Below, in pieces: positions 1,866 to 63,697 of a stretch of DNA of 64,000 bases. Source of the stretch: Nonlabens antarcticus (GTDB lineage Bacteria > Bacteroidota > Bacteroidia > Flavobacteriales > Flavobacteriaceae); assembly GCF_015356755.1 (NCBI RefSeq), contig NZ_JADFCO010000061.1, forward strand, positions 62,001 to 126,000, written 5' to 3'. How positions within the stretch are numbered: the first letter of the stretch is position 1; the number at the start of each line of letters is the position of its first letter. The notes beneath the pieces were generated by a model. It was not told the origin of the DNA. It saw nothing but the letters and a program-made list of their open reading frames with translations, and did no database searches. The position numbers were made by a program, and so were the translations under genes.

Positions 1866-1885
1866 TCGCTTTCGCGAAAGCGAGC
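1866..1885. repeat. GCTTTCGCGAAAGC palindrome, copy 1 (intergenic)
   Basis: Perfect 20-bp palindrome (core 1869-1882) between the tRNA-Arg terminator and the stop of the serine hydrolase gene. Confidence 0.95.
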
Positions 1886-1913
1886 TAATTATCAAACCCT
1901 CAAATTTTAAAAT

Positions 1914-2975
1914 TTAGAGCTTATCTAAAACTGCTGGAATTAATCGTTGCACAAAGGAATTATTATAGAAAGCGCCGCTGCTGTTCGTCAACGCTATAAC
2001 AATCGTTTGATCTAATGGTCTGTAAAATAGAAAGGATTGATACTTCAAGGTGCCGCCAGAATGTCCAACGTAGTACTGATTGTCAAAAGTCAAGTCCATT
2101 AAACCGAGGCCATAATGATCAATAATACCTGTTCCTATAGGAATTGTCATGGGTTTCATTTCAATGGAGGTATTCATAAGATCCAGCTGGTCTGGGTTAA
2201 GAATTGTTTTTTCAATAAATAACTTCTTCATGAATTTCAGCAATTCTTCGCTGGTAGCGTGAACATCACCGGCATAACCATACACTTCCTGAGAATCACT
2301 AACATCACTAACTGACTTGAGATCTTGAGCAAAAAACGTTTGAGTGGTATCTCTAGCATTCAGCATCCTGATATTACGTAATCCTTGATTTTTATAAAAG
2401 TCGTTGAAGGCAACTGCATAATTTTGTCCGTTAACTTTTTCAACTATTTTTTCTAATATCAAATAGTTGGAGTTGCTGTAATTAAAGATATTAGCTGGTT
2501 TTTTAATACCTGAAATTAAGTTTGCCCGTTCCTCAAAGCTACGCGGAGTTTTCCCAATAGTAACTAGCTTTACCCATTTTGGATTCTGTGTATAATCTGG
2601 TAAGCCGCTGGTGTGATTGAGCAGTTGTCTTATGCTGATGTTTTTCCACAAAGAACGATCATCATTTTCTATGTAGGAACTGACCTGATCTTCAAGATTT
2701 ATCTTCCCCTGCTCAACTAAATCTAAGATAAAAACAGCAACCATCATTTTAGTGGTGCTTCCTATACCATAGCTTTTAATATCCTGTACTTCTGGGTTGT
2801 GATAATCTATATAAATAGAATCCTTAGGGTTCCAAATGGTTAATTCTAGGGTAGGTAATTTATCTACTTGTGCAATTTTAAGAACATCTTCCCTGATGGA
2901 GCTCCATTCTGTACCTTGTGAATGAGCGATTGGAACCTTCAATAAAAGTGCTATAAATACTAGTATCGCTTTCAA
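1914..2975 (-). CDS. Serine hydrolase, beta-lactamase/PBP4* family
   Basis: A 353-residue secreted protein of the class C beta-lactamase and penicillin-binding-protein-like superfamily (PF00144 type). A signal peptide (MKAILVFIALLLKVPIAHSQ) ends near residue 20. The active-site S-x-x-K is STTK at residues 73-76 (GIGSTTKM), the second element is Y-S-N in NIFNYSNSNY, and the third is HSGG near the C-terminus. NHTSGLPDY is also typical. It likely acts in the periplasm on D-Ala peptides, esters or amides; sequence alone does not show beta-lactam hydrolysis. The start is TTG, chosen because it gives an intact signal peptide. Confidence 0.85.
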   Translation of the reverse strand: MKAILVFIALLLKVPIAHSQGTEWSSIREDVLKIAQVDKLPTLELTIWNPKDSIYIDYHNPEVQDIKSYGIGSTTKMMVAVFILDLVEQGKINLEDQVSSYIENDDRSLWKNISIRQLLNHTSGLPDYTQNPKWVKLVTIGKTPRSFEERANLISGIKKPANIFNYSNSNYLILEKIVEKVNGQNYAVAFNDFYKNQGLRNIRMLNARDTTQTFFAQDLKSVSDVSDSQEVYGYAGDVHATSEELLKFMKKLFIEKTILNPDQLDLMNTSIEMKPMTIPIGTGIIDHYGLGLMDLTFDNQYYVGHSGGTLKYQSFLFYRPLDQTIVIALTNSSGAFYNNSFVQRLIPAVLDKL

Positions 2976-3012
2976 ATTTCAACTATTTCTATAGGTTTAA
3001 CTTCTAATTCAT

Positions 3013-4734: not shown

Positions 4735-4748
4735 GCTTTCGCGAAAGC
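4735..4748. repeat. GCTTTCGCGAAAGC palindrome, copy 2 (intergenic)
   Basis: Exact 14-bp core between serC and serA, with no symmetric extension (left flank T, right flank G). It follows a T-rich stretch and sits 16 bp from the serC stop. Confidence 0.95.
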
Positions 4749-5825: not shown

Positions 5826-5894
5826 TCGGATTTCAATTTGATTTCTACAAAAGTGCAAAAATGGATTCCGATTCTGATAAAAACCGCTAACTTT

Positions 5895-7013
5895 TTAAGT
5901 TAAAGTCACTAGAAAGTGCACGGTATCAACACCATCTGCATAATCATTAAGCTTAGGCATTTGCGTAGTTCCGAAATCTACCAACTGTGGTGCTGCAAGT
6001 TCTTCCACGACGGGTTTCAAAACATTTTGCATTGCGGTTGTTGTAACCACACACTGTAAATTATCTGACTTTGCTTTGATCTCTGCCATTATTTCTTCTT
6101 CATTTTCATAAAAACTGTATCCTAATGAAGCGATAGGAGAGGAATAACTATCATTTTCTTCCTTCATGATAAGAAATTCATTATCCAGCAGTTTAAATTC
6201 ACTCATCAAATAAACTGCTTTATTATAATCGTAATTATTTGAATATTTAATGTAGTTGATCAATTCTCTTTTTTCAAACATCGCATTAAAGAAGGCATCA
6301 AAATTATAACCAGTAGGTACTTTTAAGTGACTTACACTGCGACATCCCAATCCAAAAAACAAGAATACATCATCGCTTAAAGCAATGAGTTCCTCGCGGG
6401 TTTCATTACCGGTTAAAATCGCGATAGAATTCCTGTTTTTCCGAATAATATTTGGTTTTTTACCAAAGTAGTGTTCAAAGTATCGCGACGTGTTATTGCT
6501 TCCCGTGGCGATGACAGCATCAAAATCGGTTAATCTTTCGCTGGTAAATTCATAAGAATCTTTTAAACTAGGAGTTTCTGCGGTGGCTAATTGCAACATC
6601 AACGGCAATAAAACATCATCATTACTGCTGGTTTTGATCTGCGCAAAATGACCGGTTAGAATGATGCACAATACATCGTGAAATCCTACCATGGGGATAT
6701 TTCCAGCAGCGATTACCGCAACCTTTTGGGGACTAACACTATCTAAATGATAGGGTGTCAGCCAGTTATTTAGATTTTCTACGGTTAATGCTTGCGACCA
6801 TTGCTCTAAAGCAAAGAGCAAATTATCGCGGGTGAACCAGGAGTTTTTCTGCTCTGCGAGCAATAAAGTTTGATTGATGGTCACCGTCCACAAGTCCTTA
6901 TTGATGTCGATATCGCTACCGCTGGATTGTAGATATTGGGCTAGAATGGAGCCCGCTTTCGCGAAAGCGGAAACTCTATCATTTAACGAGGTATTAATTG
7001 GCTTAACAGGCAA
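5895..7013 (-). CDS. LuxC-like acyl-CoA reductase
   Basis: A 372-residue protein of the acyl-CoA reductase branch of the aldehyde dehydrogenase superfamily. Visible motifs are [12 protein letters not shown] near 105, [25 protein letters not shown], a catalytic-Cys-like [13 protein letters not shown] near 222 and LQCVVTTT. It presumably reduces an acyl-CoA or acyl-phosphate, but the substrate is unknown. The only suitable start is TTG at 7013; the palindrome encodes A16-F-A-K-A20 close to it. The gene is 69 bp upstream of serC and divergent from a ferredoxin gene, a possible electron partner by inference only. Confidence 0.8.
6953..6970. repeat. Palindrome copy 3, inside acyl-CoA reductase
   Basis: 18-bp palindrome (core 6955-6968), read as AFAKA at residues 16-20. 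Confidence 0.95.
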
Positions 7014-9749: not shown

Positions 9750-11891
9750 TTAGTTGTCTAATAAGGTCAAAATGTCAATAGCGGCTGCGCTAATTTTTGT
9801 TCCCGGTCCAAAAACAGCTGCTACCCCAGCATCAAATAAAAACTGATAATCTTTACGAGGAATGACTCCACCTACAATAATCATAATGTCTTCTCGGCCG
9901 TATTTTTTCAATTCGGCCATTACCTGAGGAACTAATGTTTTATGTCCGGCGGCGAGTGATGAAATACCTAATACATGCACATCGTTTTCCACGGCTTGTT
10001 TAGCGGCTTCTTTAGGGGTTTGAAATAATGGTCCAATATCCACGTCAAAGCCTACATCGGCATAACCGGTGGCTACAACTTTGGCACCGCGATCATGGCC
10101 GTCTTGACCCATTTTTGCAATCATGATCCGTGGTCTGCGACCTTCTTTTTTTGCAAATGAATCTGCTAGCTGTTGCGCTTTCGCGAAAGCGGGATCATCC
10201 ATAATCTCTTTTTTATACACTCCTTGAACGCTTTTGATCTGGGCACGGTAACGACCAAATTCACTTTCCAATGCATCTGAAATCTCACCCAGTGTTGCAC
10301 GCTCTTTTGCTGCGTTGACTGCAAGTTCGAGGAGGTTTCCCTTCCCAGTTTTGGCACAATCGGTTAATGCCTTTAATGTCTGTTTGATCTTAGAATCATC
10401 ACGATCCTGACGTATTTGTTTCAATCGGTCAATCTGTTCAATACGCACTGCTGCATTATCAATGTCTAAAGTATCAATGTGATCTTCATCCGGACTAGGA
10501 TACTTATTGACTCCCACAATAACATCGAGATTTGAGTCGATTCTAGCTTGCTTTTTAGCAGCGGCTTCCTCAATTCTCATTTTAGGAATTCCAGCTTCAA
10601 TAGCTTTTGTCATTCCACCTAGTTCTTCAACTTCCTCAATTAACTCCCAGGCTTTATGGGCAATTTGGTCTGTAAGAGATTCCACATAATAGGATCCTGC
10701 CCAAGGATCTACTGTTTTTGTAATTGCGGTTTCCTCCTGTAAAAATATTTGGGTATTTCTAGCAATTCGCGCACTAAAATCTGTTGGTAATGCGATGGCT
10801 TCATCCAGTGCATTAGTATGTAAACTCTGTGTTCCACCAAAGGCTGCAGCGGTGGCTTCAATAGTAGTTCGAGCTACATTATTAAATGGATCCTGTTCTG
10901 TCAAAGACCAGCCTGACGTCTGGCAATGGGTTCTTAAGGAAAGTGATTTCTCGTTTTTAGGATTGAATTGTTTGATCAACTTTGCCCAGAGCATTCTAGC
11001 CGCACGCATCTTGGCAATTTCCATAAAATGGTTCATCCCAATCGCCCAAAAGAAGGATAGGCGAGGAGCGAAGGTGTCTATATCCATTCCAGCATCAAGC
11101 CCTTTACGCACGTATTCTAATCCGTCTGCGAGGGTATAAGCGAGCTCAATATCACTGGTCGCACCAGCTTCATACATATGATAACCAGATATGGAGATGG
11201 AGTTGAACTTAGGCATGTGCTCGCTTGTATACTCAAAAATATCTGAGATGATCTGCATGCTAGGTTGGGGCGGATAGATGTAGGTGTTTCTAACCATGAA
11301 TTCTTTGAGAATATCATTTTGAATCGTACCACTCAATTCCTTGATATCAACACCTTGCTCCATTGCTGCAACGATATAAAACGCCATAATAGGCAATACA
11401 GCCCCATTCATAGTCATGGAAACCGACATCTTATCCAGCGGAATAGAGTCAAACAAAATTTTCATATCCTCAACGCTGTCGATCGCAACACCTGCTTTTC
11501 CCACATCGCCTTCTACTCGTGCATGATCACTATCATAACCGCGGTGCGTTGCAAGATCAAAAGCAACCGAAAGTCCTTTCTGTCCAGCCGCTAGATTACG
11601 TCTGTAAAAAGCATTTGACTCGGTAGCACTAGAGAAACCAGCATATTGACGGATGGTCCACGGACGTCTTACATACATCGTAGAATATGGACCACGCAAA
11701 TTAGGAGCTATACCAGCAACGAAATCTAAATGTTCCAGATTTTTAATATCCTCAGCAGAATATTCCTTTTTTAATGATATGCCTTCGGAGGTTTGATACT
11801 CTTGCTCTTCAGAAGCCGCAATAGTTTTCGGAAACGTAAGTTTTTCAAAGTCTGCTTTAATATGGGAAAGGTCTTTTCTTTTCATCATCAT
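9750..11891 (-). CDS. mutB: Methylmalonyl-CoA mutase large subunit
   Basis: A 713-residue adenosylcobalamin enzyme subunit interconverting succinyl-CoA and methylmalonyl-CoA. The N-terminal TIM barrel shows [15 protein letters not shown] near 75, [20 protein letters not shown] and [13 protein letters not shown]. The C-terminal cobalamin domain has the DxHxxG motif DGHDRG at 597-602 with axial His599, then GVIPRKDY. It overlaps the end of mutA by 4 bp, so the two subunits are translationally coupled. One palindrome copy encodes AFAKA at 568-572 in the linker before the B12 domain ([15 protein letters not shown]), without changing the expected length. Confidence 0.96.
10176..10191. repeat. Palindrome copy 4, inside mutB
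   Basis: 16-bp palindrome (core 10177-10190), read as AFAKA at residues 568-572 in the linker preceding the cobalamin domain. Confidence 0.95.
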
Positions 11892-13285
11892 TTCGGCATT
11901 TGTGATTTTTCCAGATCTTCTGCAAGTCTTTTTACTGAAATAGGTGTTATCAAGGTTTTGCGTGGTTCGATTTTCTGGAATGGTAAAATCTCGTATTCTT
12001 TTTGCAATGGCAAATCGGCATTTGGAAACTTATTGACGCCTACCAGTGTTTTTTCACCTTTTTTCAAAAGTTCTCGTTCTGCCGTATCGCTTTCCTTGAT
12101 TTTGCGCTGGATCGTTCCCTCAAAAAGAGAAGTTATTAAGCCACCAGAAGCTTCTATAGTTTTGAAGATTTCCAGCGATTTTTCCACTAACTCTTTCGTA
12201 AGCGTATTTATATAATAATTACCATCAGCTGCATTGGCCACCTTATTCAAGTAAGCTTCTTCTTTTAAAATCAACAACTGGTTGCGAGCAATGCGTTCCC
12301 CAAACTCATTCTGTTTGTGAAAAAAAGAATCATATGGTAAATTGTAAACGGTATCTGAACCTCCCAAAACGGCACTCATACATTCCGTCGTGGTGCGTAG
12401 AAGGTTGACGTTGTAATCGAGCAAGGATTTATTTCTAATGCTGGGAGTTGCTGTAATGTAGCAGCTTAACTCAAGGCCGTAGGCATTTCCAATAGTTTTG
12501 GTAAGAATGCGGTACGCTTTAATCTTTGAAATTTCCATGAAGTAGTTAGCTCCAATAGTAATGTCAATATTGATCCTTTTTTCCGCTTTCGCGAAAGCGG
12601 AAAAAATTTCCTCATCATGCTCCTTTCCTGAATCGCAAAAAGCATTTAAATATTCATTTAAGTGAGCTGTAAAATATGCGAGTTCTTGAGTTGCTGTTGC
12701 GCCACCTTGCTGATAATTACTCGTATTGATAGTAATATTTGAAAAATATTTAGGGAATATCTTCAAAAACTCTTGGTAATTTTTAAAATCATGATCTTTA
12801 TTTTTAAACCAGTTTCCATTCGACCCTAATCTATGAATAGGATCTAAATGAACATTAGCTTTAGGAAGAAAGCCAGAAAGCTTTTTTAAAAACTCTAGAT
12901 CTAAAAACTGTGGGTGTACTTGAACTCCTATTTCCGGAAGGTTATTTAAGAGAACCTCAAGATCAATCGTTGGATCAGGAATATCGAGAATAACACCTTC
13001 TGCACCACGTTCTAGAATGTCAAGTGCTTTCTTGTTAGCTGCCCTAGCATTACCGCAATAAATTTTTTGAGAAACATACCAGTCTTTCTTCTTGCCAGCG
13101 CTATCTGGAACATCAAATACAGGCGCGCTATCAGAATGATAAATTGGTTTAATATTAATCCCCTCTGGAGTACTCGTGACCAGCGTTTGATTGTAATCTG
13201 CGCCTTTGAGATCCATCTGGATCTTCTGCTTCCAGGCGGTTTCTGAAACTGGAGAGAAATCATCAAATAATCGCTTCTTCATCAA
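11888..13285 (-). CDS. mutA: Methylmalonyl-CoA mutase small subunit
   Basis: A 465-residue, non-catalytic partner of mutB. It has the mutase barrel fold ([55 protein letters not shown]) but ends without the cobalamin-binding DxHxxG domain, as expected for the small subunit. The start overlaps the stop of the ftsB-like gene by 4 bp and its stop overlaps mutB by 4 bp, so the unit is tightly coupled. It carries a palindrome copy (AFAKA from residue 230, SAFAKAEKR) that is extended by T and A runs to 30 bp of perfect dyad symmetry. Confidence 0.94.
12577..12606. repeat. Palindrome copy 5, extended to 30 bp, inside mutA
   Basis: Core 12585-12598 with symmetric CC/GG and six T / six A on each side: a perfect 30-bp palindrome inside a coding region, resembling a terminator hairpin. 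Confidence 0.95.
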
Positions 13286-15385: not shown

Positions 15386-16252
15386 ATGAAGTATAAAGGC
15401 GAGTTATTTGAAAAAGAACAAAACCGTATTATCACAAATGCGATACGGGAAGATGTGGGAAGTGGAGACCACAGCAGTCTTGCCTGTATTCCTCGCAATG
15501 CAACTGGTAAAGCGCGCTTACTAGTGAAAGATGAAGGAGTGATTGCTGGAATCGCTTTCGCGAAAGCGGTATTTCACCATGTAGACCCTGCATTAAAGAT
15601 CGAGGAATTAAAGAAAGATGGCGATAGAGTTATTTATGGGGATGAGGTTTTTTACGTCTCTGGTTCCTCGCGATCAATCCTCACTGCAGAGCGTATTGTT
15701 TTAAATAGCATGCAGCGCATGAGCGCCATAGCAACAAAAACAAAAGCTTTTGTAGAATTACTCGAAGGAACCGGAACAAAAATTCTGGATACCAGAAAAA
15801 CCACGCCTGGAATACGCTTGTTAGAAAAATGGGCGGTACATATAGGAGGAGGCGTTAATCACCGACAAGGATTGTTTGATATGATTATGCTTAAGGATAA
15901 TCACATCGATTTTGCAGGAGGTATAACTAAAGCGATTGAAAAAACTCTGGATTACCTTCATGAAAAAGAATTGAATCTAAAAATTATCGTAGAAGCGAGA
16001 AATCTAGATGAGATTAAGGAAATACTAAAATCTGGAAAGGTGTATCGTATTTTGATCGATAATTTCGATTTTGATCAAACAAGAAAAGCGGTAGAACTCA
16101 TAGGTGATCAATGTTTGACGGAAAGTAGTGGTGGTATTACACTCCTTACTGCACGACAATATGCAGATTGCGGTGTTGATTATATTTCTAGCGGTGCTTT
16201 AACTCATAGTGTCTACAATATGGACCTCAGTTTGAAAGCCATGCATGAGTAA
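15386..16252 (+). CDS. nadC: Nicotinate-nucleotide pyrophosphorylase (carboxylating)
   Basis: A 288-residue quinolinate phosphoribosyltransferase of de novo NAD synthesis, forming nicotinate mononucleotide from quinolinate and PRPP. Motifs are REDVGSGDHSS near 20, ERIVLNSMQRMSAIAT near 110, DTRKTTPGIR near 133, GGGVNHRQGLFDMIMLKDNH and the C-terminal SSGGITL...DYISSGALTHS. The palindrome codes A57-F-A-K-A61 in GIAFAKAVF, where the family usually has G-x-x-x-A-x-x-x-F, with no length change. yihY starts inside its last codons (8-bp overlap). Confidence 0.95.
   Translation: MKYKGELFEKEQNRIITNAIREDVGSGDHSSLACIPRNATGKARLLVKDEGVIAGIAFAKAVFHHVDPALKIEELKKDGDRVIYGDEVFYVSGSSRSILTAERIVLNSMQRMSAIATKTKAFVELLEGTGTKILDTRKTTPGIRLLEKWAVHIGGGVNHRQGLFDMIMLKDNHIDFAGGITKAIEKTLDYLHEKELNLKIIVEARNLDEIKEILKSGKVYRILIDNFDFDQTRKAVELIGDQCLTESSGGITLLTARQYADCGVDYISSGALTHSVYNMDLSLKAMHE
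15553..15568. repeat. Palindrome copy 6, inside nadC
   Basis: 16-bp palindrome (core 15554-15567) read as AFAKA at residues 57-61. Confidence 0.95.
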
Positions 16253-17818: not shown

Positions 17819-17829
17819 ATATCATACAC

Positions 17830-18255
17830 ATGAAGAATATTGTAATGTTGATGTTGATGTGTTTCGCTTTCGCGAAAGCGTACTCGCAGGATGTCACAGG
17901 AACATGGAAAACCGTTGACGAGAAATCTGGAAAAGTAAAGTCACATGTTGAGATTTATAAAAACGGTGATAAATATTACGGAAAAATTCTTAAAGTATTA
18001 TCTGAAAAGGGCGCCGAATATTCAAAGTGTACGTCTTGTGAAGGAAAATTGAAGGATCAACCCCTAGAAGGTCTAGTTATAATGGAGGGTCTTGAAAAAC
18101 ACGGAAAAATGTATAAAGGTGGATCAGTGGTAGATCCAGAAAGCGGGAAGTCCTATGATTGTAAAATATGGCTTAATGAGGATAACCCAGACTTACTTAT
18201 GGTACGTGGTTATGTGTTATTCATATACCGCACACAAACCTGGGAACGCATATAA
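17830..18255 (+). CDS. DUF2147 exported protein
   Basis: A 141-residue exported DUF2147 protein. The ATG at 17830 is chosen over the in-frame 17797 because it gives the signal peptide MKNIVMLMLMCFAFAKAYSQ. The mature domain shows the family pattern: VTGTWKTVDEKSGKVKSHVE, YYGKILKVL, a CTSC pair, VDPESGKSYDCKIWL and LMVRGYVLFIYRTQTW. Family function is unknown. The palindrome copy encodes residues 13-17 (AFAKA) and thus supplies the end of the signal peptide, placing a Lys four residues before the predicted cleavage site after SQ. Confidence 0.88.
   Translation: MKNIVMLMLMCFAFAKAYSQDVTGTWKTVDEKSGKVKSHVEIYKNGDKYYGKILKVLSEKGAEYSKCTSCEGKLKDQPLEGLVIMEGLEKHGKMYKGGSVVDPESGKSYDCKIWLNEDNPDLLMVRGYVLFIYRTQTWERI
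17865..17880. repeat. Palindrome copy 7, inside a signal-peptide coding region
   Basis: 16-bp palindrome (core 17866-17879) read as AFAKA at residues 13-17 of the DUF2147 protein. Confidence 0.95.
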
Positions 18256-23795: not shown

Positions 23796-24325
23796 AATAA
23801 CGATTGCTGTCCGTGGGAAAGGTCTATTCCTTCTAAGTCTAGCAATGCTTGCTTTGCTCTCAGACCTCCTGCATAACCAGTTAAAGCGCCATCTGCACCT
23901 ATAATACGGTGGCATGGGACTATTATAGATAGGGCATTTGCTCCATTAGCAGCTGCCACAGCTCTTATACTTTTAGGGTTTTTACGCTTTCGCGAAAGCG
24001 AACTATAGGACATCGTTTCACCATATGGGATTTCTACTAAATCATTCCACACGCTTTTTTGGAACTCCGTACCGCACAGAAGAATGGGCAAATGAAACTT
24101 TTGAATCTCTTTTGTGAAATAACGATCTAATTGATAGATGGTTTGGTCGATCAACTCATGGGTCCCAGTAATCATTTCTGCCTGGCAAGTAACTTCTATT
24201 CGTTTATTCACAGCTTCTCTTTGCTTGCGATAAGTCCAGTCACACATGCATAACTTATCTTCAAAAACGCCTAAGGTTATTTCACCAACGGGTGATTTGT
24301 AGATTGTTGTAATGATATTACTCAT
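23792..24325 (-). CDS. ogt: Methylated-DNA-protein cysteine methyltransferase
   Basis: A 177-residue suicide DNA-repair protein that removes alkyl groups from O6-alkylguanine. The acceptor Cys is in VPCHRIIGADGALTGYAGG, with the helix-turn-helix Arg-finger region SIRAVAAANGANALSIIVPC before it and FQKSVWNDLVEIPYGETMSY in the wing. The palindrome encodes S109-L-S-R-K-R114 in SSLSRKRKNPKS. The usual sequence there is of the type ELARRLGNPKA, so the repeat fits with no length change. It overlaps the upstream ABC permease gene by 8 bp. Confidence 0.93.
   Translation of the reverse strand: MSNIITTIYKSPVGEITLGVFEDKLCMCDWTYRKQREAVNKRIEVTCQAEMITGTHELIDQTIYQLDRYFTKEIQKFHLPILLCGTEFQKSVWNDLVEIPYGETMSYSSLSRKRKNPKSIRAVAAANGANALSIIVPCHRIIGADGALTGYAGGLRAKQALLDLEGIDLSHGQQSLF
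23985..24000. repeat. Palindrome copy 8, inside ogt
   Basis: 16-bp palindrome (core 23986-23999). It is the only copy in the window read in the third frame, as SLSRKR. Confidence 0.95.
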
Positions 24326-35895: not shown

Positions 35896-35923
35896 ATTTT
35901 CCGCTTTCGCGAAAGCGGAAAAT
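35896..35923. repeat. Palindrome copy 11, extended to 28 bp (intergenic)
   Basis: Core 35903-35916 with symmetric extension to 28 bp including T and A runs, 18 bp after the murA stop. In this position it could act as the murA terminator. Confidence 0.95.
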
Positions 35924-38794: not shown

Positions 38795-38862
38795 TTACAG
38801 TAATCACAAAACAATCCGTGATTTACGCAAAAGCAGTATATTCATTTTGTGAAAATCGCAAA

Positions 38863-42736: not shown

Positions 42737-42756
42737 TTCGCTTTCGCGAAAGCGAA
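42737..42756. repeat. Palindrome copy 13 (intergenic)
   Basis: Perfect 20-bp palindrome (core 42740-42753) in the 110-bp gap between the ALDH gene stop and the DUF2945 start. It lies 26 bp upstream of the DUF2945 ATG, in a possible promoter region rather than a terminator position for that gene. Confidence 0.95.
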
Positions 42757-44887: not shown

Positions 44888-46008
44888 TACAGATCTTTAC
44901 GATATGTACGTCTGCGTTTGTGGAGAATAGGGTCAAAATCTTTCCAGGAAGCCTGGACGGCATAATTGTCTTCAAGTTCTGGATTTGTCTCACAAAGGTC
45001 GATCCCGTAGTTCATGAAATTCTGGGTAATATTGCGGAACACCATTGCTGTAACGCCTTTTCCCTGCAATTTAGGGTCAATTCCAATTAAATAAAATGAT
45101 GCGAGGTTATTTTTCTTTTTTGCTTTCAAAAGATGTAAAAAACCAAAAGGGAACAAGTGTCCGTTAGCTTTCTGCAAGGCCTTAGAAAAGGAGGGCATGG
45201 TGATCGCAAACGCAACTAATTTCCCGTCATTGTCCACGACAGCCACCACAAAATCTGGATTGATGAACTGTAGAAATTTCTCACGGTACAGATCTACCTG
45301 ATATTGCTGTATGGGTACATAGCTTACCAGTTTTGAATAGGACTGATTGAGTAATACAAACATCGCATCCACATAAGGTTCAATTTCCTTGGTGGATTGG
45401 AATTTGAGTTCTCGCAGACCATAGCGTTTAGCAATAAGATCAGCAAATTTGTTGAAACGTTCTGGTACCGGATTGGGAGGTTCAAATTTGAATTCGACCC
45501 ACTCTGCACCTTTCACAAAACCCAGTTGTTCCATATGTTCCATATAATAGGGATCATTATACCATCCTATCATAGTGGCAAGTTCATCGTAACCTTTGAT
45601 CAACATTCCCGCTCGATCCATGAGTGTAAAACCTACCGGACCTTCCATATATTCCAGGTTGTTTTCGGTTCCCAATTTAGAAACTTCGGCAAGCAGTGCT
45701 TTTGTAACTTCCACGTCATCTACCATGTCCAGCCACCCAAAACGCATTTTAGATTTCTGCTGTTCCTCTACTTCAATATGATTGATAATTGCAGCGACCC
45801 TTCCCACAATTTCGCTTTCGCGGAAAGCGAGAAACAACCAACATTCTGCATTTTTAAAAACCTGATTTTTCTCTGGATCAAAGTTGGCCATTTCGTCGTT
45901 GATCAATGGCGGCACGAAATAGGGATTGTCCTTGTAGAGATCCATAGGGAACTTCACAAATTTCTTGATATCCTTTTTACTCGATATACGTTTAACAGTA
46001 ATACTCAT
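44887..46008 (-). CDS. GNAT-fold protein, unknown substrate
   Basis: A 373-residue protein often left as hypothetical in Flavobacteriia. It looks like an acyl-CoA N-acyltransferase: SEIVGRVAAIINH near 65 resembles a GNAT strand, and SFYLIGIDPKLQGKGVTAMV near 300 resembles the GNAT acetyl-CoA loop (Q/RxxGxG/A). The N-terminal third has FPMDLYKDNPYFVPPLINDE, typical of this group. It contains the one imperfect palindrome copy (read AFRES from residue 61). It overlaps the next gene by 1 bp and is 18 bp downstream of the outer-membrane gene. Confidence 0.6.
   Translation of the reverse strand: MSITVKRISSKKDIKKFVKFPMDLYKDNPYFVPPLINDEMANFDPEKNQVFKNAECWLFLAFRESEIVGRVAAIINHIEVEEQQKSKMRFGWLDMVDDVEVTKALLAEVSKLGTENNLEYMEGPVGFTLMDRAGMLIKGYDELATMIGWYNDPYYMEHMEQLGFVKGAEWVEFKFEPPNPVPERFNKFADLIAKRYGLRELKFQSTKEIEPYVDAMFVLLNQSYSKLVSYVPIQQYQVDLYREKFLQFINPDFVVAVVDNDGKLVAFAITMPSFSKALQKANGHLFPFGFLHLLKAKKKNNLASFYLIGIDPKLQGKGVTAMVFRNITQNFMNYGIDLCETNPELEDNYAVQASWKDFDPILHKRRRTYRKDL
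45814..45828. repeat. Palindrome copy 14, imperfect (15 bp), inside the GNAT-like gene
   Basis: GCTTTCGCGGAAAGC: the two arms are intact but one G is inserted at the centre. Read in frame as AFRES. Confidence 0.85.
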
Positions 46009-49804: not shown

Positions 49805-51085
49805 TTGAAAGAGACACTGTTTATCGTTAGCTATTATTGGCCTCCCGCTGGTGGGCCAGGCGTACAGCGGTGGTTGAAGTTCGTTACCCATTTACCCAAA
49901 GAGGATTTTGATATTCACGTTATCATTCCAGAAAACCCAGATTACCCTAGTACAGACGATTCCTTGATGGCAGAAATTCCGTCTGGAATATCAGTCACTA
50001 AAGTCGCAATCAAAGAGCCCACGAGATTTTTGAAAAAACTGTTTGGGTCTAAGACAAAACAATTGCAACGCGGTTTTATCGAGAAGAAACCTGGTTTCAT
50101 AGAAAGGATCTTGTTGTGGATCCGTGGGAATTTTTTCATTCCAGATGCTCGAGTTTCTTGGGTGAACAAAGTGGTTAAAGAGTTGAAAGATGATTCCGCT
50201 TTCGCGAAAGCGGACTTCCTCATCACCACTGGACCACCACATTCTGTGCATTTAATAGGATTGTGGTTGAAACAATCATCACATTCAACCGTAAAATGGA
50301 TCGCAGATTTCCGGGATCCATGGACGACTATAGGGTATCATAAATCCTTGAAACTCACCAAATCGTCTACCGCAGAACACGTGCGGCTGGAACAACAAGT
50401 CTTAACAAAAGCCGACCAAATCCTAGTCACAAGTCCCGCTACCAAGGAAGAATTTGCCAAAAAAACCGAAAAACCCATTGCGGTAATTACCAATGGATTT
50501 GATCTAGAAACGAACGACACATTGCAGCCCAACGGTAAATTTACCATCAGCCACATAGGAACCCTTCTGGCAGACCGTGATCCCAAAACGCTGTGGATTG
50601 CGCTAAGGGATATCGCAAAAAATAATCCAGGTTTTGCTGCAGATCTTGAGTTGCAATTGGCTGGCAATGTTAGCGACAATGTGCTGCAATCCATAAAGGA
50701 TGCTGGACTGAAAAATTACCTTCAAAACCTGGGTTATGTAAGCCACGTAAAGGCCTTGGAGTTGATGTACGCATCTCAAATATTGTTATTGATTGAGATT
50801 AATGATAGAGATACACGAGTCATCATTCCTGGAAAACTCTTTGAATATTTAGCCAGCCGCAGGCCCATCATCGCCATAGGTCCTGCCGATTCAGATATTG
50901 AAAAAATATTGGAAGATACAAATGCCGGAACCTACTTTACCTATGACGGGCATAGCCTCAAGGCTCAGATTCTGAAATCTTACATCCTGTTTAAAGAGGG
51001 TAAATTAATTGGGAATTTGTCTGATATTTCAAACTTTCACCGCAAGCAATTGACTCAGCAACTTATGAAAATTCTCCAGAACTAA
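49805..51085 (+). CDS. Glycosyltransferase, GT4-like
   Basis: A 426-residue cytoplasmic glycosyltransferase with a GT-B layout. The N-terminal YYWPPAGGPGVQRWLKF is typical of flavobacterial family 4 enzymes, WIADFRDPWTT lies near 162, and the C-terminal domain has SHIGTLLADRDPKTLW, NLGYVSHVKALELMYASQIL and IPGKLFEYLASRRPIIAIGP. The donor sugar is unknown. The start is TTG immediately after the yfhO stop, and its stop overlaps the flippase start by one base. One palindrome copy encodes A132-F-A-K-A136 (DSAFAKADF). Confidence 0.88.
   Translation: MKETLFIVSYYWPPAGGPGVQRWLKFVTHLPKEDFDIHVIIPENPDYPSTDDSLMAEIPSGISVTKVAIKEPTRFLKKLFGSKTKQLQRGFIEKKPGFIERILLWIRGNFFIPDARVSWVNKVVKELKDDSAFAKADFLITTGPPHSVHLIGLWLKQSSHSTVKWIADFRDPWTTIGYHKSLKLTKSSTAEHVRLEQQVLTKADQILVTSPATKEEFAKKTEKPIAVITNGFDLETNDTLQPNGKFTISHIGTLLADRDPKTLWIALRDIAKNNPGFAADLELQLAGNVSDNVLQSIKDAGLKNYLQNLGYVSHVKALELMYASQILLLIEINDRDTRVIIPGKLFEYLASRRPIIAIGPADSDIEKILEDTNAGTYFTYDGHSLKAQILKSYILFKEGKLIGNLSDISNFHRKQLTQQLMKILQN
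50197..50212. repeat. Palindrome copy 15, inside the glycosyltransferase gene
   Basis: Core 50198-50211, read as AFAKA at residues 132-136 just before the conserved FLITTGPPHS strand. Confidence 0.95.
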
Positions 51086-52554
51086 TGGGGATCGTGATCA
51101 AACATAGCAGTTGGAATCTGGTAGTGACTGGATTTGGTTTTTTACTGGGCGCAATCAATGTTTTGGCACTTGCCACCACTTACTTAGACGACGATTATTA
51201 CGGTCTGTGGAATTATATTCTGAGCACCTCATTTTTGTTGTTTCCGTTGATGTCCTTCGGTTTGCACAATACTATCGTAAAATATTACTCCACTTTCAAA
51301 ACCGATCGGGAACGCAATAACTTCCTGACTCAAATGCTATTTTGGCCATTTGTGGGAGCAATTCCTATATTTTTATTGGTCTTTGTTTTTTATGACGATA
51401 TCAGATTGCTGATTTCCTCTACCAATCAAATGGTGGGTGATTTCCTGTGGCCCATTTTATTAATTGCAGTTTTTCAAGCCTATTTTGAGATCTTTTATGC
51501 GTGGACTAAAGTGTATTTAAAAACGATAGGAGGTAATTTTTTAAAAGAAGTTTTTTATAGGGCTGCCGCGACGGTAACACTATTATTAGTGGCATTTGAT
51601 TTCATCACCCAGGTTCAATTTATCTATGCTTTGATTCTGATTTATTTCCTACGCATGCTGCTGATGGGAATCATGGCGTGGCGGACCTTCGCGCCCAAAT
51701 TTGTTTTTTACAAGCTCGAAGCATCGAGGGAATTGATATGGTACTCGACCTTAATGGTCATCGCTGGGAGCGTGGGAACCGCGTTGATTGACCTCGATAA
51801 GAATATGTTGAATCAATACATGGATATTTCAAACATCAGTTATTATGGGGTTGCAGGTTTTATTGCGACGGTCATTGCCATTCCAGCGCGTGGTATGGCT
51901 CAAATTATACATCCATTGACGGCGGGTTATTTTAATGCTGGAAATATGGAAAAGGTGGAATGGTTGTACAAACGCAGCTCCCTTAACCTGACCATTATTT
52001 CTGGACTGTTGATGGTGCTAATCATTTGTAACGTGAACGAGTTTTATGAAATTTTACCACCTGCATTTGCAGTTGCGATTCCTGTGGTATTCTTGATTTC
52101 TTTGGTCAAGTTTACAGAGAGTCTGCTGGGTAGTAATAATGCTATTTTGTACAATACAAACCTCTATCAGTTCACGCTTTGGCTAGGTCTAGGACTTGCC
52201 GTTATTGCGTTTTTGTTGAACATCTGGCTCATTCCATCTTACGGTTTTATAGGGGCTGCGGCGGCGACTTGTGTATCTTATGTGGTTTACGCTTTCGCGA
52301 AAGCGTATTACGTACAGATCAAACTTAAGATCCATCCATGGACCACGCAAACGAGCATCACCTTACTATTGGTTGTGGTGTTGATAGCACTATTTTATCC
52401 GTGGGATTTTCAATGGAATGTGTATGTAAACATCGGCGTTAAAAGTATTCTGATCACCATTGCTTTTGCCATTACTGTCTACGTTCTAAGGCTTTCTTCA
52501 GAAATTAATGCCGCTGTCCAAAAGTTTTTAGACCAAATAAAACGCCCGCGATAA
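51085..52554 (+). CDS. Polysaccharide flippase, MATE/Wzx-like
   Basis: A 489-residue membrane protein with about 12-14 helices of the oligosaccharide flippase (MVF/Wzx) superfamily. It begins SSWNLVVTGFGFLLGAINVL; IDLDKNMLNQYMDISNISYY near 232-252 and IIHPLTAGYFNAGNMEKVEW follow. It likely flips lipid-linked sugars across the inner membrane, fitting its position behind a glycosyltransferase. A palindrome copy encodes A403-F-A-K-A407 in YAFAKAYY, at the end of a membrane helix. A terminator overlaps its stop codon. Confidence 0.88.
   Translation: MGIVIKHSSWNLVVTGFGFLLGAINVLALATTYLDDDYYGLWNYILSTSFLLFPLMSFGLHNTIVKYYSTFKTDRERNNFLTQMLFWPFVGAIPIFLLVFVFYDDIRLLISSTNQMVGDFLWPILLIAVFQAYFEIFYAWTKVYLKTIGGNFLKEVFYRAAATVTLLLVAFDFITQVQFIYALILIYFLRMLLMGIMAWRTFAPKFVFYKLEASRELIWYSTLMVIAGSVGTALIDLDKNMLNQYMDISNISYYGVAGFIATVIAIPARGMAQIIHPLTAGYFNAGNMEKVEWLYKRSSLNLTIISGLLMVLIICNVNEFYEILPPAFAVAIPVVFLISLVKFTESLLGSNNAILYNTNLYQFTLWLGLGLAVIAFLLNIWLIPSYGFIGAAAATCVSYVVYAFAKAYYVQIKLKIHPWTTQTSITLLLVVVLIALFYPWDFQWNVYVNIGVKSILITIAFAITVYVLRLSSEINAAVQKFLDQIKRPR
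52289..52306. repeat. Palindrome copy 16, inside the flippase gene
   Basis: Core 52291-52304 with symmetric AC/GT extension; read as AFAKA at residues 403-407. Confidence 0.95.
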
Positions 52555-56941: not shown

Positions 56942-57448
56942 TTAATTGAGTATATCTTGTTTTAAAGTAGATTGATTTTCAGGTTCTGTGTACACACCAA
57001 ATTTTTTAACGAGTGCGCTTTCGCGAAAGCGAAATATTTCATCCAGTTTGGGTTTCACCAAAAACGGATGCACCATTTTCCCTAGAAAGCCTAAGGGTAA
57101 TCTGTAATGGACAATGTCTTCCATAAGTGTCCCACCGGGAATTTCACTCACAAAATGTTTATGATGCCAGGTTGCGTAGGGACCATACATCTGTTCATCC
57201 ACAAAATATTGCTTTTCTTTCACCTGGGTAATGTGTGTCACCCAGTTTGTCGTAAAGAAAGGCAATGGCTTAACAGAGTATTCAATGAGCTGGCCAGGAT
57301 ACATCCCGCGATCCGTTCCATAGAGAACTGTCATTTCCATTGCTGGTGGAGTAAGAAGTTTCAGATTATTAGCATCTGTGAGAAACGCCCAGGCTTCATC
57401 TAATGTTATGGGTAACTTTTGCTTGGTATGAACTTGGTATAATTTCAA
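56942..57448 (-). CDS. SRPBCC family protein
   Basis: A 168-residue ligand-binding-fold protein of the SRPBCC (Bet v1-like) superfamily, of the type often annotated as a cell division inhibitor. LPITLDEAWAFLTDANNLKL, LTPPAMEM, VTHITQVKEKQYFVDEQMYG, YATWHHKHFVSEIPGGTLME and DIVHYRLPLGFLGK are typical. The start is TTG at 57448. The SDR start is 2 bp away from its stop. One palindrome copy codes R140-F-R-E-S144 in FRFRESALVKK near the C-terminus, where the family ends in a variable helix. Confidence 0.85.
   Translation of the reverse strand: MKLYQVHTKQKLPITLDEAWAFLTDANNLKLLTPPAMEMTVLYGTDRGMYPGQLIEYSVKPLPFFTTNWVTHITQVKEKQYFVDEQMYGPYATWHHKHFVSEIPGGTLMEDIVHYRLPLGFLGKMVHPFLVKPKLDEIFRFRESALVKKFGVYTEPENQSTLKQDILN
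57016..57031. repeat. Palindrome copy 17, inside the SRPBCC gene
   Basis: Core 57017-57030, read as RFRES at residues 140-144 in the last helix. Confidence 0.95.
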
Positions 57449-58306: not shown

Positions 58307-58328
58307 GTTCGCTTTCGCGAAAGCGAAC
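58307..58328. repeat. Palindrome copy 18 (intergenic)
   Basis: Perfect 22-bp palindrome (core 58311-58324) in the divergent region between the barrel protein and the CsbD genes, where promoters of both would be expected. Confidence 0.95.
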
Positions 58329-61365: not shown

Positions 61366-61374
61366 GAATAGGTT

Positions 61375-61405
61375 TTGCGGGTGATCTCGTAGAAAACTAC
61401 ATTTG
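61375..61405 (+). promoter_or_regulatory. glmM promoter
   Basis: TTG at 61375-61377, a 20-bp spacer and TACATTTG at 61398-61405 match the Bacteroidota consensus exactly, 24 bp before the ATG. Confidence 0.85.
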
Positions 61406-61428
61406 TCGTAAATATAACAACTACACAC

Positions 61429-62823
61429 ATGACACTCATAAAATCCATTTCAGGAATTCGCGGCACTATAGGGGGCAACCCTGGAGACAATTTAACTCCG
61501 CTAGATGCCGTGAAATTTGCTAGCGCTTATGGAAAATGGATCAAAACAGCTTCAGGCAAGGAAAGACCACTAGTAGTAATAGGCCGTGACGCTCGTATTA
61601 GTGGTGCTATGATCCAGGCTTTGGTTCAAAATACACTGGTGGGAATGGGATGTGATGTAATTGATTTAGGTTTGAGCACAACGCCTACCGTAGAGATTGC
61701 CGTACCCCAAGAAAACGCAGATGGAGGTATCATTCTCACCGCTAGCCATAACCCCAAAGAATGGAATGCCCTTAAACTACTCAATAACAAAGGCGAATTT
61801 CTGGATGGAGTAGAAGGTCAGAAGATTCTGGATACGGCAGCTGCAGAGGATTTCGCTTACGCGGAAGTTGATGATCTAGGTCAAGTCACTGCGATAACCG
61901 ACTATATTGACAAACACATTGTTGAAGTATTAAAATTGCCACTGGTCCAGGTCGATGCGATAAAGGCCGGCAAATTTAAAGTGGTGGTGGATGGAGTGAA
62001 CTCCACGGGAGGTATTGCCATTCCTGCATTATGCAAGGCATTAGGTGTTGAGGTGGTAGAATTATATTGCGATCCCACGGGACACTTTCCCCACAATCCA
62101 GAACCATTGAAGGAACATCTGGGCGATTTATGCGCAGCAGTCACAGAACATAAAGCCGACTTTGGCATCACCGTAGATCCAGACGTGGATAGACTTGCCT
62201 TTATTACCGATAAAGGAGAAATGTTTGGGGAAGAATATACGCTCGTAGCTTGCGCAGATTATGTGCTGAGCAAGAAAAAAGGAGATACGGTGAGCAACCT
62301 ATCTTCTTCCAGAGCATTGCGGGACGTGACCGTAAAACATGGTGGTAACTACCATGCAGCAGCTGTGGGCGAGGTAAATGTCGTTACTAAAATGAAAGCC
62401 GTGAAAGCCGTTATAGGCGGTGAGGGAAACGGCGGTATCATCTATCCAGACAGCCATTATGGTCGTGATGCATTAGTAGGCGTGGCACTGTTCCTATCCC
62501 TTTTAACAGAGAAGAAAATGAAAGTTAGCGATCTGCGTGACAGTTATCCTTCCTACTTTATGGGTAAGAAAAAAGTACAGCTAACGCCGGGAATGCCAGT
62601 AGATGCTATTTTGAAAGACGTCGAAAAAAAATATGCTTCAGAAGATCTAACCACCATAGACGGTGTAAAAATCGACTTTGAAAACGAATGGGTGCACTTG
62701 CGTAAATCAAACACAGAACCTATCATTAGAATTTATACGGAATCAGGAAGTCAACAAGCTGCAGATCAACTAGCAGACCGCTTTATTGCAGAACTCGAGG
62801 GGATAGCTCAACAGCACGGGTAA
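61429..62823 (+). CDS. glmM: Phosphoglucosamine mutase
   Basis: A 464-residue alpha-phosphohexomutase, most likely GlmM, which converts glucosamine-6-phosphate to glucosamine-1-phosphate for UDP-GlcNAc and so for peptidoglycan and LPS. The phosphoserine is in ILTASHNPKEWNALKLL near 104. The metal site is DPDVDRLAFI near 246, GGEGNGGIIYP near 330 binds sugar and RKSNTEPIIRIYTES near 425 binds phosphate. A phosphomannomutase role cannot be fully excluded. Its last 41 bp overlap the end of the converging acyltransferase gene. Confidence 0.9.
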   Translation: MTLIKSISGIRGTIGGNPGDNLTPLDAVKFASAYGKWIKTASGKERPLVVIGRDARISGAMIQALVQNTLVGMGCDVIDLGLSTTPTVEIAVPQENADGGIILTASHNPKEWNALKLLNNKGEFLDGVEGQKILDTAAAEDFAYAEVDDLGQVTAITDYIDKHIVEVLKLPLVQVDAIKAGKFKVVVDGVNSTGGIAIPALCKALGVEVVELYCDPTGHFPHNPEPLKEHLGDLCAAVTEHKADFGITVDPDVDRLAFITDKGEMFGEEYTLVACADYVLSKKKGDTVSNLSSSRALRDVTVKHGGNYHAAAVGEVNVVTKMKAVKAVIGGEGNGGIIYPDSHYGRDALVGVALFLSLLTEKKMKVSDLRDSYPSYFMGKKKVQLTPGMPVDAILKDVEKKYASEDLTTIDGVKIDFENEWVHLRKSNTEPIIRIYTESGSQQAADQLADRFIAELEGIAQQHG

Positions 62824-63697
62824 CATCATCAGGCGTGGTTTTCCAGCGCTTGTGGGACCATAGATAATATTCGGGCTGGCTTTTTATGAGCGCCTCCAGT
62901 TTTACAAAAAAGCTATCGGTGACCATCCATTCCGGTTCTTTGCTCGCGTCTCTAGTGATGAGTTCAAAATGTGCTTTGTAATAACCTCGTTTTACTTTTT
63001 TCACTTGCAGGAAGTAGACCGGCATTTCATATTGTTTTGCCATGCGTTCTGCGCCCATGAATACTGGTGTGGTTTGATTGAAAAAAGTGGTGAAGAACTG
63101 TGCTGATGATTGTTTGGGAGCTTGATCTGCGACGAGTGCATATAATCCGGCTTCCATGGAGTTGCGGCTGCCGCGTATGATGTTGTAGGCCTTTTTCATG
63201 GGTACGAGAGTAGAACCAAATTTTGATCGTACTCTCCTTATAAACTGGTCAAAATATCTATTCTTGATGGGTTTATATACCACATAGGATTTGAAATCCA
63301 GAAATTGATCCAGTGCAATAGTCCATTCGTAGCTGGCCTGGTGGGCTAGCATTACAACTGTGGGCTGTCCCGCTTTCGCGAAAGCGTTAACCTCCTCAAT
63401 GTTGTCACATATAAAGCGTTTTTGAACTTCATCATGTGTAATACCCGTTGACTTAACCATCTCAAGGAAAATATCGCAAAAGTGCTGTGTACTTTCTTTT
63501 GATATGCGAGTGATTTCTTTGTCATTCAGGTCTGGAAAAGCAATTTTTATGTTTGAGAAGATGACATCACGGCGGTATTTGAAAACGTGATAAAGTAACA
63601 CATAAATGCAATCGCTTATGAAATAGATGATTGGAAAGGGAAGTCTGGAAATCAGCCAGATTATGGGATAAGCAAGATAAAATCCGACGGCTTGCAT
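62783..63697 (-). CDS. Lipid A acyltransferase-like protein (LpxL/HtrB)
   Basis: A 304-residue membrane-anchored acyltransferase of the LpxL/HtrB group, which adds a secondary acyl chain to lipid A precursors. An N-terminal hydrophobic segment (MQAVGFYLAYPIIWLISRLP) is followed by the catalytic H(x4)D/E motif in VMLAHQASYEW (His, then Glu). Further blocks are SRNSMEAGLYALVADQAPKQ and FTTFFNQTTPVFMGAERMAK. The frame reaches 63841, but the ATG at 63697 gives the normal start. The palindrome encodes A105-F-A-K-A109 before the catalytic strand. Its end overlaps glmM by 41 bp. Confidence 0.9.
   Translation of the reverse strand: MQAVGFYLAYPIIWLISRLPFPIIYFISDCIYVLLYHVFKYRRDVIFSNIKIAFPDLNDKEITRISKESTQHFCDIFLEMVKSTGITHDEVQKRFICDNIEEVNAFAKAGQPTVVMLAHQASYEWTIALDQFLDFKSYVVYKPIKNRYFDQFIRRVRSKFGSTLVPMKKAYNIIRGSRNSMEAGLYALVADQAPKQSSAQFFTTFFNQTTPVFMGAERMAKQYEMPVYFLQVKKVKRGYYKAHFELITRDASKEPEWMVTDSFFVKLEALIKSQPEYYLWSHKRWKTTPDDVTRAVELSPRVLQ
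63371..63386. repeat. Palindrome copy 19, inside the acyltransferase gene
   Basis: 16-bp palindrome (core 63372-63385), read as AFAKA at residues 105-109 just before the catalytic motif strand. Confidence 0.95.

What the first reader, a model, noticed from the sequence alone, without database searches (positions are those of the whole stretch)
1866..63386. A highly iterated palindrome, core GCTTTCGCGAAAGC, spread across the whole window
Eighteen exact copies of the 14-bp core, plus one with an inserted base, lie in 64 kb, at 1869, 4735, 6955, 10177, 12585, 15554, 17866, 23986, 26882, 31446, 35903, 38891, 42740, 45814 (imperfect), 50198, 52291, 57017, 58311 and 63372. Sixteen of the exact copies extend to the 16-mer CGCTTTCGCGAAAGCG. 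A given 16-mer is expected about 0.000015 times by chance in 64 kb of random DNA. Spacing is irregular but dispersed (roughly 1.3-7.8 kb). It is found in genes of unrelated function and in gaps, so it is not tied to one operon. Possible roles: a recognition site for a nucleoid or replication protein, a methylation or restriction mark (it contains TCGCGA and CGCG), a DNA-uptake word, or a spreading palindromic element. I know of HIP1 in cyanobacteria and DNA-uptake words in Neisseria and Pasteurellaceae as analogies; I do not know a described role for this word in Flavobacteriia.
Basis: partly seen in the sequence, partly recalled or inferred. Interest (0 to 1): 0.88.

Follow-up and report, generated by a model that had tools for sequence, protein, structure and literature searches.

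The report
Genus-wide repeated palindrome in Nonlabens
The Nonlabens (marine bacterium) genomes examined all carry the same 16-letter palindrome hundreds of times, spaced a few thousand letters apart and kept almost unchanged while the genes around it diverge, which looks like a self-recognition tag, most likely for taking up the species' own DNA, although the protein that reads it is not known.

Summary
The window is from Nonlabens (Flavobacteriaceae). Its genome holds 611 copies of GCTTTCGCGAAAGC; 23 of 23 Nonlabens genomes hold 288-857, 0 of 16 others in that search any. Where outgroups could be compared well (two genes), copies arose by substitution, not insertion. They are nearly frozen: 374 of 405 aligned orthologous cases are exact, 33 expected. 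New here: a symmetric flank signature to about 30 bp on each side; copies repel each other, 9 of 227 gaps under 1 kb against 51 expected; an even spread along one sampled chromosome; enrichment between genes; about three times the information needed to mark the sites. Neither methylase family searched, nor an extra ParB, goes with the word. A plasmid piece and two related Nonlabens phages lack it; some other phage contigs carry it. Best reading, about 0.45: a palindromic self-DNA uptake word kept by molecular drive, the first for Bacteroidota that my searches reach. Binding protein and function are not shown. Rivals: chromosome-organising or Chi-like site, HIP1-like methylation/repair.

The parts
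1868..1881 (.). word copy (14-mer core), intergenic between convergent ORFs
   Evidence: exact match; context; exact in the 1 aligned relative
4735..4748 (.). word copy, intergenic, 16 bp past the 3' end of the ORF at 4764-5858(-)
   Evidence: exact in the 1 aligned relative
6955..6968 (.). word copy in ORF 5895-7013(-), reads SAFAKAG; exact in G019, absent at the aligned site in G022 (5 mismatches, no gap)
10177..10190 (.). word copy in the methylmalonyl-CoA mutase gene (9750-11891 -)
   Evidence: exact in 3 of 3 aligned relatives
12585..12598 (.). word copy in ORF 11888-13285(-)
   Evidence: exact in 3 of 3 aligned relatives
15554..15567 (.). word copy in ORF 15386-16252(+); 7 of 7 outgroup homologues align without gap and already read xFAKx (6) or xFARx (1)
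17866..17879 (.). word copy in ORF 17797-18255(+), near the N-terminus (CFAFAKAYSQ)
   Evidence: exact in 2 of 2 aligned relatives
23986..23999 (.). word copy in ORF 23792-24325(-), phase 2 (SLSRKRK)
   Evidence: exact in 6 of 6 aligned relatives
26882..26895 (.). word copy in hisS (25720-27093 +), reads RFRES; exact in 10 of 10 syntenic congeners and in 19 of 23 Nonlabens genomes
31446..31459 (.). word copy in a recQ-type helicase gene (30828-32717 -)
   Evidence: exact in 6 of 6 aligned relatives
35903..35916 (.). word copy 25 bp downstream of the murA stop, with extended palindromic arms
   Evidence: exact in 3 of 4 aligned relatives, the fourth cut by the alignment end
38891..38904 (.). 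word copy in ORF 38818-39825(+); 14-mer only, not the full 16-mer; no aligned relative
42740..42753 (.). word copy, intergenic, downstream of ORF 42822-44195(-)
   Evidence: exact in 5 of 5 aligned relatives
45814..45828 (.). degenerate word with one inserted base (GCTTTCGCGGAAAGC)
   Evidence: sequence
50198..50211 (.). word copy in ORF 49805-51085(+); exact in 2 of 4 aligned relatives, one-off in G008, split by a CCTGCC..CAGGCAGG palindrome in G004
52291..52304 (.). word copy in ORF 51085-52554(+)
   Evidence: exact in 4 of 4 aligned relatives
57017..57030 (.). word copy in ORF 56942-57448(-)
   Evidence: exact in 4 of 4 aligned relatives
58311..58324 (.). word copy, intergenic, between divergent ORFs
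   Evidence: exact in 4 of 4 aligned relatives
63372..63385 (.). word copy in ORF 62783-63841(-); no aligned relative

Best explanation
The word (16-bp palindrome CGCTTTCGCGAAAGCG in a roughly 50-80 bp symmetric context) is a genus-specific self-DNA recognition site of Nonlabens. Shown: genus-wide, genome-wide, nearly frozen, evenly spaced, with graded flanks, and made by substitution where this could be tested. Inferred: a two-fold-symmetric receptor of the natural-transformation machinery binds it, so fragments that carry a word are taken up and recombined more often. That bias (molecular drive, with or without a benefit to the cell) created words from near-matches in permissive places, keeps them intact, and stops favouring a second word within about 2 kb because one per incoming fragment is enough. 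The receptor is not identified, and my searches found no report of an uptake test in Nonlabens.
For: Copy number and genus limit as in known uptake words. Even spacing with repulsion: 2 of 227 gaps under 500 bp against 26.8 expected, commonest gaps 2-3.5 kb; in samples of one genome alone 6 of 82 gaps under 1 kb against 21.1. DUS spacing is reported to match conversion-fragment length and USS to be relatively evenly spread (passages of PMC2397512 and PMC7811141). About 31 bits in the 16-mer plus about 6 in the flanks, against 12.4 needed to locate the sites. Bimodal mismatch spectrum: 240 exact, 22 one-off, 9 two-off in 1.03 Mb; 14,019 exact and 2,109 one-off over 23 genomes. Graded A-rich, G-poor flanks; USS also have AT-rich flanks. 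81 of 240 words between genes against 30 expected. Sparser in unshared sequence, 0.171 against 0.243 per kb ('unshared' includes regions that merely lost synteny). 0 in the 20 kb read of a Mob_Pre plasmid and 0 in two closely related Nonlabens phages. ComEC 23 of 23, DUF5689 22 of 23, DUF1343 23 of 23; proteins with these domains are needed for transformation in Riemerella (PMC8459023), and R. columbina prefers its own DNA (PMC7965970).
Against: Known uptake words are not palindromes (recalled). The machinery does not discriminate: DUF5689 is also in 14 of 15 and DUF1343 in 15 of 15 same-family genomes of other genera, and ComEC in 10 of 14 control genomes. Two further Riemerella transformation proteins were not searched. 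DUF5689 proteins are acidic and show nothing special in Nonlabens. No sign of recombination centred on words: divergence is not lower near them. Placement in variable sequence is weak: Spearman -0.17 (p 0.006) between divergence and distance in one close pair, 0.00 in the other. No preference for gaps between convergent genes (12 of 73 words against about 15 by length). Some tailed-phage contigs carry words in structural genes, up to 6 in 37.4 kb, which uptake drive explains only for long-resident prophages. Scaled selection of about 5.6 per copy is strong for drive alone.
Confidence: 0.45

Rival explanations
1. Chromosome-organising site: a homodimeric nucleoid or segregation protein binds each palindrome, wraps the flanks, and needs one site every few kb to fold or tether the chromosome.
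For: Palindrome plus symmetric flanks suits a dimer that wraps DNA. Even spacing and no visible origin-terminus trend in 20 samples of one chromosome. Strong per-site conservation. Some phage contigs carry it.
Against: No extra ParB-type protein: 17 of 20 Nonlabens genomes searched have a single ParB_N, as have 9 of 15 genomes of other genera. Several hundred 16-bp sites would have had to arise one by one early in the genus (inference), and the information content is threefold more than needed. No candidate protein found.
Confidence: 0.22
2. Chi-like site: a recombination or defence nuclease reads the word and switches from degradation to repair; the palindrome works from either side, and words mark DNA as self.
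For: Density of about one per 5 kb, near that of E. coli Chi (recalled). Each strand is G/T-rich and C-poor 5' of the word, the kind of strand RecA prefers (recalled). The two densest viral contigs carry words at about one per 6 kb (6 in 37.4 kb, 4 in 23.9 kb); an island in another genus carries four.
Against: Known Chi sites are 5-8 bases, non-palindromic and read as single strands (recalled); a 16-bp palindrome would fold on itself. Phages P12024S and P12024L do without it.
Confidence: 0.15
3. HIP1-like by-product of methylation: an orphan methyltransferase reads a core such as TCGCGA and mismatch repair biased by methylation creates and preserves the word.
For: Highly iterated palindrome as in cyanobacteria, where such a model exists (PMC4390886, abstract and part 1 of section 3.4).
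Against: C5 methylases 14 of 23, N6/N4 methylases 12 of 23, three genomes with neither. The site is 16 bp plus flanks, longer than usual methylase sites (recalled), and TCGCGA outside words is near expectation in the window (10 against 8.4 by base composition). Other methylase families were not searched.
Confidence: 0.08
4. A mobile palindromic repeat that spreads by insertion.
For: Another palindrome family (CCTGCC..GGCAGG) does sit as an insert in the word itself.
Against: The two word sites with good outgroup alignments show no indel (hisS 20 of 20, ORF 15386-16252 7 of 7); copies sit at orthologous places across the genus. In the poorly conserved ORF 17797-18255 3 of 8 outgroup alignments have gaps of 1-2 residues near the site, not of the word's length.
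Confidence: 0.03

Closest known systems
DNA uptake sequences of Neisseria and uptake signal sequences of Pasteurellaceae
   Same: Clade-level word in hundreds to thousands of copies, in genes and gaps, highly conserved, even spacing, AT-rich flanks (USS), fewer in newly acquired DNA (published features from passages)
   Different: Those have non-palindromic 9-12-base cores (recalled; core lengths 9 and 10); here a 16-bp palindrome with two-fold symmetric flanks, sparser (about one per 5 kb), in a phylum for which my searches found no proven uptake word; uptake not tested
HIP1 and alternate HIPs of cyanobacteria
   Same: Highly iterated GC-rich palindrome across a clade, in coding and non-coding DNA, maintained by an unsettled force
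   Different: HIP1 is an 8-mer at about one per kb with partner methyltransferases; here 16 bp plus flanks, about five times sparser on average, with no shared partner in the two methylase families searched
ParB parS and Noc binding sites
   Same: 14-16 bp palindromes with TTTC..GAAA half-sites (recalled)
   Different: Few and origin-clustered (parS) or ter-excluded (Noc) (recalled); here hundreds and even; half-site spacing differs by 2 bp; no added ParB paralogue
Chi sites
   Same: Similar density, strand-composition bias next to the site
   Different: Chi is short and directional (recalled); this is long and palindromic

Membership tests
DNA uptake sequence (DUS/USS) | Large over-representation confined to a clade | tested here: met
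   23 of 23 Nonlabens 288-857 copies, 0 of 16 others; the 12-mer core is in 89 of 394 other Bacteroidota genomes, at most 11 copies
DNA uptake sequence (DUS/USS) | Copies conserved beyond surrounding sequence | tested here: met
   374 of 405 aligned cases exact, 33 expected; core positions 97-99% identical, background about 74%
DNA uptake sequence (DUS/USS) | Even spacing | tested here: met
   CV 0.62 against 0.98 simulated; one genome alone 0.53 against 0.89
DNA uptake sequence (DUS/USS) | Fewer copies in recently acquired DNA | tested here: inconclusive
   0.171 per kb unshared against 0.243 shared, but unshared includes loss of synteny; plasmid piece 0 in 20 kb, six other small contigs 10 in 65.6 kb; some phage contigs carry it
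DNA uptake sequence (DUS/USS) | Host has transformation machinery | tested here: inconclusive
   ComEC 23 of 23, DUF5689 22 of 23, DUF1343 23 of 23, but not specific to genera with the word
DNA uptake sequence (DUS/USS) | Word enhances DNA uptake in the cell | not testable with these tools
   needs an uptake or competition assay
Cyanobacterial HIP | Partner methyltransferase in genomes with the word | tested here: inconclusive
   not met for the two families searched: PF00145 14 of 23, PF01555 12 of 23, G007, G008 and G010 neither; other methylase families not searched
parS/Noc-type ParB system | Cognate ParB-family paralogue and regional clustering | tested here: not met
   single ParB_N in 17 of 20; 2-9 words in each of 20 samples along one chromosome, the sample with 2 half masked
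Chi site | Attenuates the recombination nuclease | not testable with these tools
   needs a biochemical assay
Mobile palindromic repeat (REP/MITE-like) | Copies appear as insertions | tested here: not met
   no indel at hisS in 20 of 20 outgroup sequences nor at ORF 15386-16252 in 7 of 7; other genes not conserved enough or not covered

The most novel reading that the evidence does not exclude
A new class of bacterial self-mark: a long palindrome with a symmetric strand-composition skew on its flanks, laid down most often 2-3.5 kb apart with a refractory distance near 2 kb, read by an unknown dimeric protein, and also adopted by some phages and a mobile-looking island. It is neither an uptake word nor a methylation by-product but a spacing-regulated chromosomal address system.
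Probability: 0.3. Interest if true: 0.9.

Novelty: new variant of a known kind. Interest (0 to 1): 0.73.

Why it matters
Uptake words are established in two bacterial families (Neisseriaceae and Pasteurellaceae, passage in PMC7811141), and what HIP1 does is unsettled (PMC4390886). If the reading holds, Nonlabens gives a third independent case, in another phylum, with sharp statistics: nearly all-or-none copies, a spacing rule, graded flanks and a clean boundary at the genus. It makes the drive-versus-function question testable with one handle: add or remove the word in transforming DNA. It may also mark DNA that left the genus, as in the metal-efflux island L233.

Tried and rejected
Insertion origin: rejected by gap-free outgroup alignments at two genes; 3 of 8 alignments of the poorly conserved ORF 17797-18255 have 1-2-residue gaps near the site. 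Universal methylase of two families: rejected. Extra ParB: rejected. Origin-terminus gradient: not seen in 20 samples of G019; sample L205 is half masked (9874 N). Mutational hot spot as cause of the flank skew: flank positions +4 to +12 are 77-88% identical against a background of about 74%, although +2, +13 and +16 are lower, 67-72%. Recombination trace near words: not seen; one close pair has slightly more divergence near words, the other no trend. Similar words in other genera: in the 54 of 80 loci L009-L088 that reach 12 kb, a count of dispersed 11-mers and palindromic 10-mers flagged a palindrome only in Nonlabens L009; four other loci were flagged for non-palindromic repeats; a word with fewer than three copies per locus would be missed. 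DUF5689 as receptor: no distinguishing feature in 16 Nonlabens and 14 other proteins. The negative correlation between density and one-off ratio (rho -0.69) is partly mechanical; one-off per Mb against exact per Mb gave rho -0.32, p 0.13. 12-mer hits outside the genus: of 15 read in the large genus g18, 10 lack the outer bases; in G403, which has 11, 4 of 5 read are full 14-mers, so weak presence or transfer there is open. Papers: the 14-mer is in 0 papers of the library; Nonlabens with 'uptake sequence' 0 and with 'natural transformation' 0; Nonlabens with 'palindrom' 7 and a broader query 23 (10 shown), none about this by title.
Full report
CHECK. The window holds 18 exact GCTTTCGCGAAAGC and none with one or two mismatches; shuffles give 0.24 on average. 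Sixteen extend to CGCTTTCGCGAAAGCG, and one further copy at 45814 has an inserted base. Thirteen of 18 lie in ORFs, in all three phases (reading AFAKA, RFRES or SLSRKR), five between genes. Shuffling codon order within 44 ORFs gave no copy in 200 replicates against 9 observed there.

IDENTITY AND RANGE. The source is the genus Nonlabens: genome G016, in the same genus, has a contig of 394,848 bases, the length of the N. xiamenensis contig found with the window's hisS protein. The word occurs 611 times in the window's genome and 288-857 times in each of 23 Nonlabens genomes; 0 of 16 others in that search have it, and the word read backwards occurs 0 times in the 39. The 12-mer CTTTCGCGAAAG occurs 647 times here; of 394 other Bacteroidota genomes 89 have any and the most is 11. 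Of the 80 loci fetched with hisS (L009-L088) only N. xiamenensis has the 14-mer.

ORIGIN AND CONSERVATION. In hisS the word encodes RFRES. It is exact at this site in 19 of 23 Nonlabens genomes; the other four keep RFR but not the word. In outgroup sequences the site aligns without a gap and without the word (12 of 12, 20 of 20 at protein level). In ORF 15386-16252 seven outgroup homologues read xFAKx or xFARx where Nonlabens reads AFAKA, again without a gap. So at these sites words grew by substitution. In syntenic regions of 11 genomes, 405 aligned cases (ordered pairs, not independent; 1145 more could not be aligned) gave 374 exact, 8 one-off, 2 two-off, 3 five-off and 18 with alignment gaps, against 32.7 exact expected from random 14-mers of the same alignments. 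In diverged pairs the core positions are 97-99% identical where the background is about 74%. Over 23 genomes there are 14,019 exact and 2,109 one-off copies; with 42 one-step neighbours and uniform mutation this is a scaled selection (or drive) of about 5.6. G021 is an outlier, with the fewest exact copies and the highest one-off ratio (0.46).

ANATOMY. Pooling both strands, the bases 3' of the word are G-poor (5% at +4 to +10, 13% at +21 to +30, 19-21% beyond +50) and A-rich, strongest at +3, +4, +10 and +13; the 5' side is the complement, C-poor and G/T-rich. The signature is present in 93 genic and 37 other copies. The 16-mer carries 31 bits (in sites chosen for at most two mismatches in the 14-mer) and the flanks to 20 bp about 6 more, against 12.4 bits needed to find 611 sites. 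Flanks at +4 to +12 are conserved a little more than background. Palindromic pairing does not extend past about +3, so it is not simply a longer hairpin.

PLACEMENT. Gaps between words are regular: 227 gaps, mean 4.05 kb, CV 0.62 (0.98 simulated); 2 under 500 bp against 26.8 expected and 9 under 1 kb against 50.6; 0 of 2000 simulations as even; the commonest gaps are 2-3.5 kb. Some of these gaps are orthologous between genomes, but the samples of G019 alone show the same (82 gaps, CV 0.53 against 0.89; 0 of 2000). Whole-genome density is about one word per 5 kb, 0.115-0.251 per kb by genome. Twenty evenly spaced 20-kb samples of one chromosome hold 2-9 words each. With a simple gene caller, 81 of 240 words are intergenic against 30 expected; 53 of 69 distances to a neighbouring gene's 3' end are under 100 bp, but gaps between convergent genes are not preferred (12 of 73), and 48 of 159 genic words fall in the first fifth of the ORF, which the caller's early starts may inflate. 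Density is lower in sequence not shared among the 11 regions.

MOBILE DNA. The related phages P12024S and P12024L of Nonlabens (71 kb together) have no word. A 29-kb contig with a plasmid mobilisation gene has none in the 20 kb read; six other small contigs hold 10 words in 65.6 kb. An IMG/VR scan found 41 stretches with the 16-mer. Two were examined for genes: L184 has portal, head-maturation-protease-like, major head, connector and tape-measure proteins, 7 of 7 scanned proteins with phage families, and L191 has baseplate-hub and tail matches, 5 of 9; both carry words with the flank pattern, and their contigs hold 3 exact 16-mers in 29.6 kb and 6 in 37.4 kb. Several other stretches are GC-rich single-copy contigs that look like chance. 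Contigs without the word were not sampled. In another genus of the family (G167) four 14-mer words lie within 16 kb of metal-efflux genes, which looks like a transfer from Nonlabens.

MECHANISM. Shown: a word under strong, site-by-site maintenance, in a large symmetric context, with a spacing rule. Inferred: a dimeric reader and biased uptake of own DNA. The case rests on the match with published properties of uptake words (passages of PMC2397512 and PMC7811141), on excess information, on intergenic enrichment and on the presence of ComEC (23 of 23), DUF5689 (22 of 23) and DUF1343 (23 of 23), none of them specific to this genus. In Riemerella, placed in Flavobacteriaceae by its authors, ComEC and proteins with DUF5689 and DUF1343 are needed for transformation (PMC8459023, abstract and two sections), and R. 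columbina prefers its own DNA, while a count of short k-mers there listed A/T-rich words only (PMC7965970, passages and one section). Against: the palindrome, words in phages, and no trace of recombination near words. I put uptake at 0.45.

RIVALS AND NOVELTY. A chromosome-organising protein (0.22), a Chi-like site (0.15) and a HIP1-like methylation by-product (0.08; model read in PMC4390886, abstract and part of one section) remain; insertion (0.03) is contradicted where tested. The searches that returned nothing on this word were made; searches listed no paper on it by title. It is filed as a new variant of the highly iterated word or uptake-word kind; membership in DUS/USS is unproven because the defining uptake test cannot be run here.

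Noticed in passing
L241, L243-L246, L249-L252; G004 site orthologous to window 50198: A second palindrome family (CCTGCCTGCCGG(T)CAGGCAGG and relatives) sits inside the word at one fixed point, CGCTTTCGCG^AAAGCG. The junction TTTCGCGCCTGCC has 33 strand matches in G004, 36 in G008 (two of them one element), 14 in G022 and 1-3 in five more of 23 genomes. 27 of 45 distinct elements of the pattern CCTGCCTGNCGG in G004 are in words, but none in G005 despite 34 strand matches.
   Followed up: partly
L242, L248 (G002, G015): A different insert, CCTGCCCAGAGCGCAGTCGAAGGG, lies at the same point of what looks like an orthologous word in two species.
   Followed up: no
L233 (G167:C1:309232-328910): Metal-efflux genes (AcrB-type pumps, multicopper oxidase, heavy-metal P-type ATPase) in another genus with four Nonlabens-type words; a ParB_N protein in a 616-aa frame, as in some Nonlabens, lies about 30 kb away.
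   Followed up: partly
L184, L191 (IMG/VR contigs 3300039191_000376 and 3300040781_000495): Tailed-phage contigs carry the word inside structural genes, e.g. AFAKA in a head-maturation-protease-like protein between portal and major head genes.
   Followed up: partly
G021: Lowest exact count (288) and highest one-off to exact ratio (0.46) in the genus: possibly a lineage losing the system; the assembly is 78% complete.
   Followed up: no
G001, G003, G012, G017 (hisS; L112, L108, L107, L101): Four genomes keep the RFR peptide in hisS without the word, so either the word decayed there or the peptide came first.
   Followed up: no
G403 (same family, other genus): 11 copies of the 12-mer; 4 of 5 read are full 14-mers. 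Weak presence or transfer of the word outside the genus is possible.
   Followed up: no
L290 (G008:C2): Mobilisable plasmid-like contig with a TIR-domain protein (CAP12/Pycsar effector-like) and no word in the 20 kb read.
   Followed up: no
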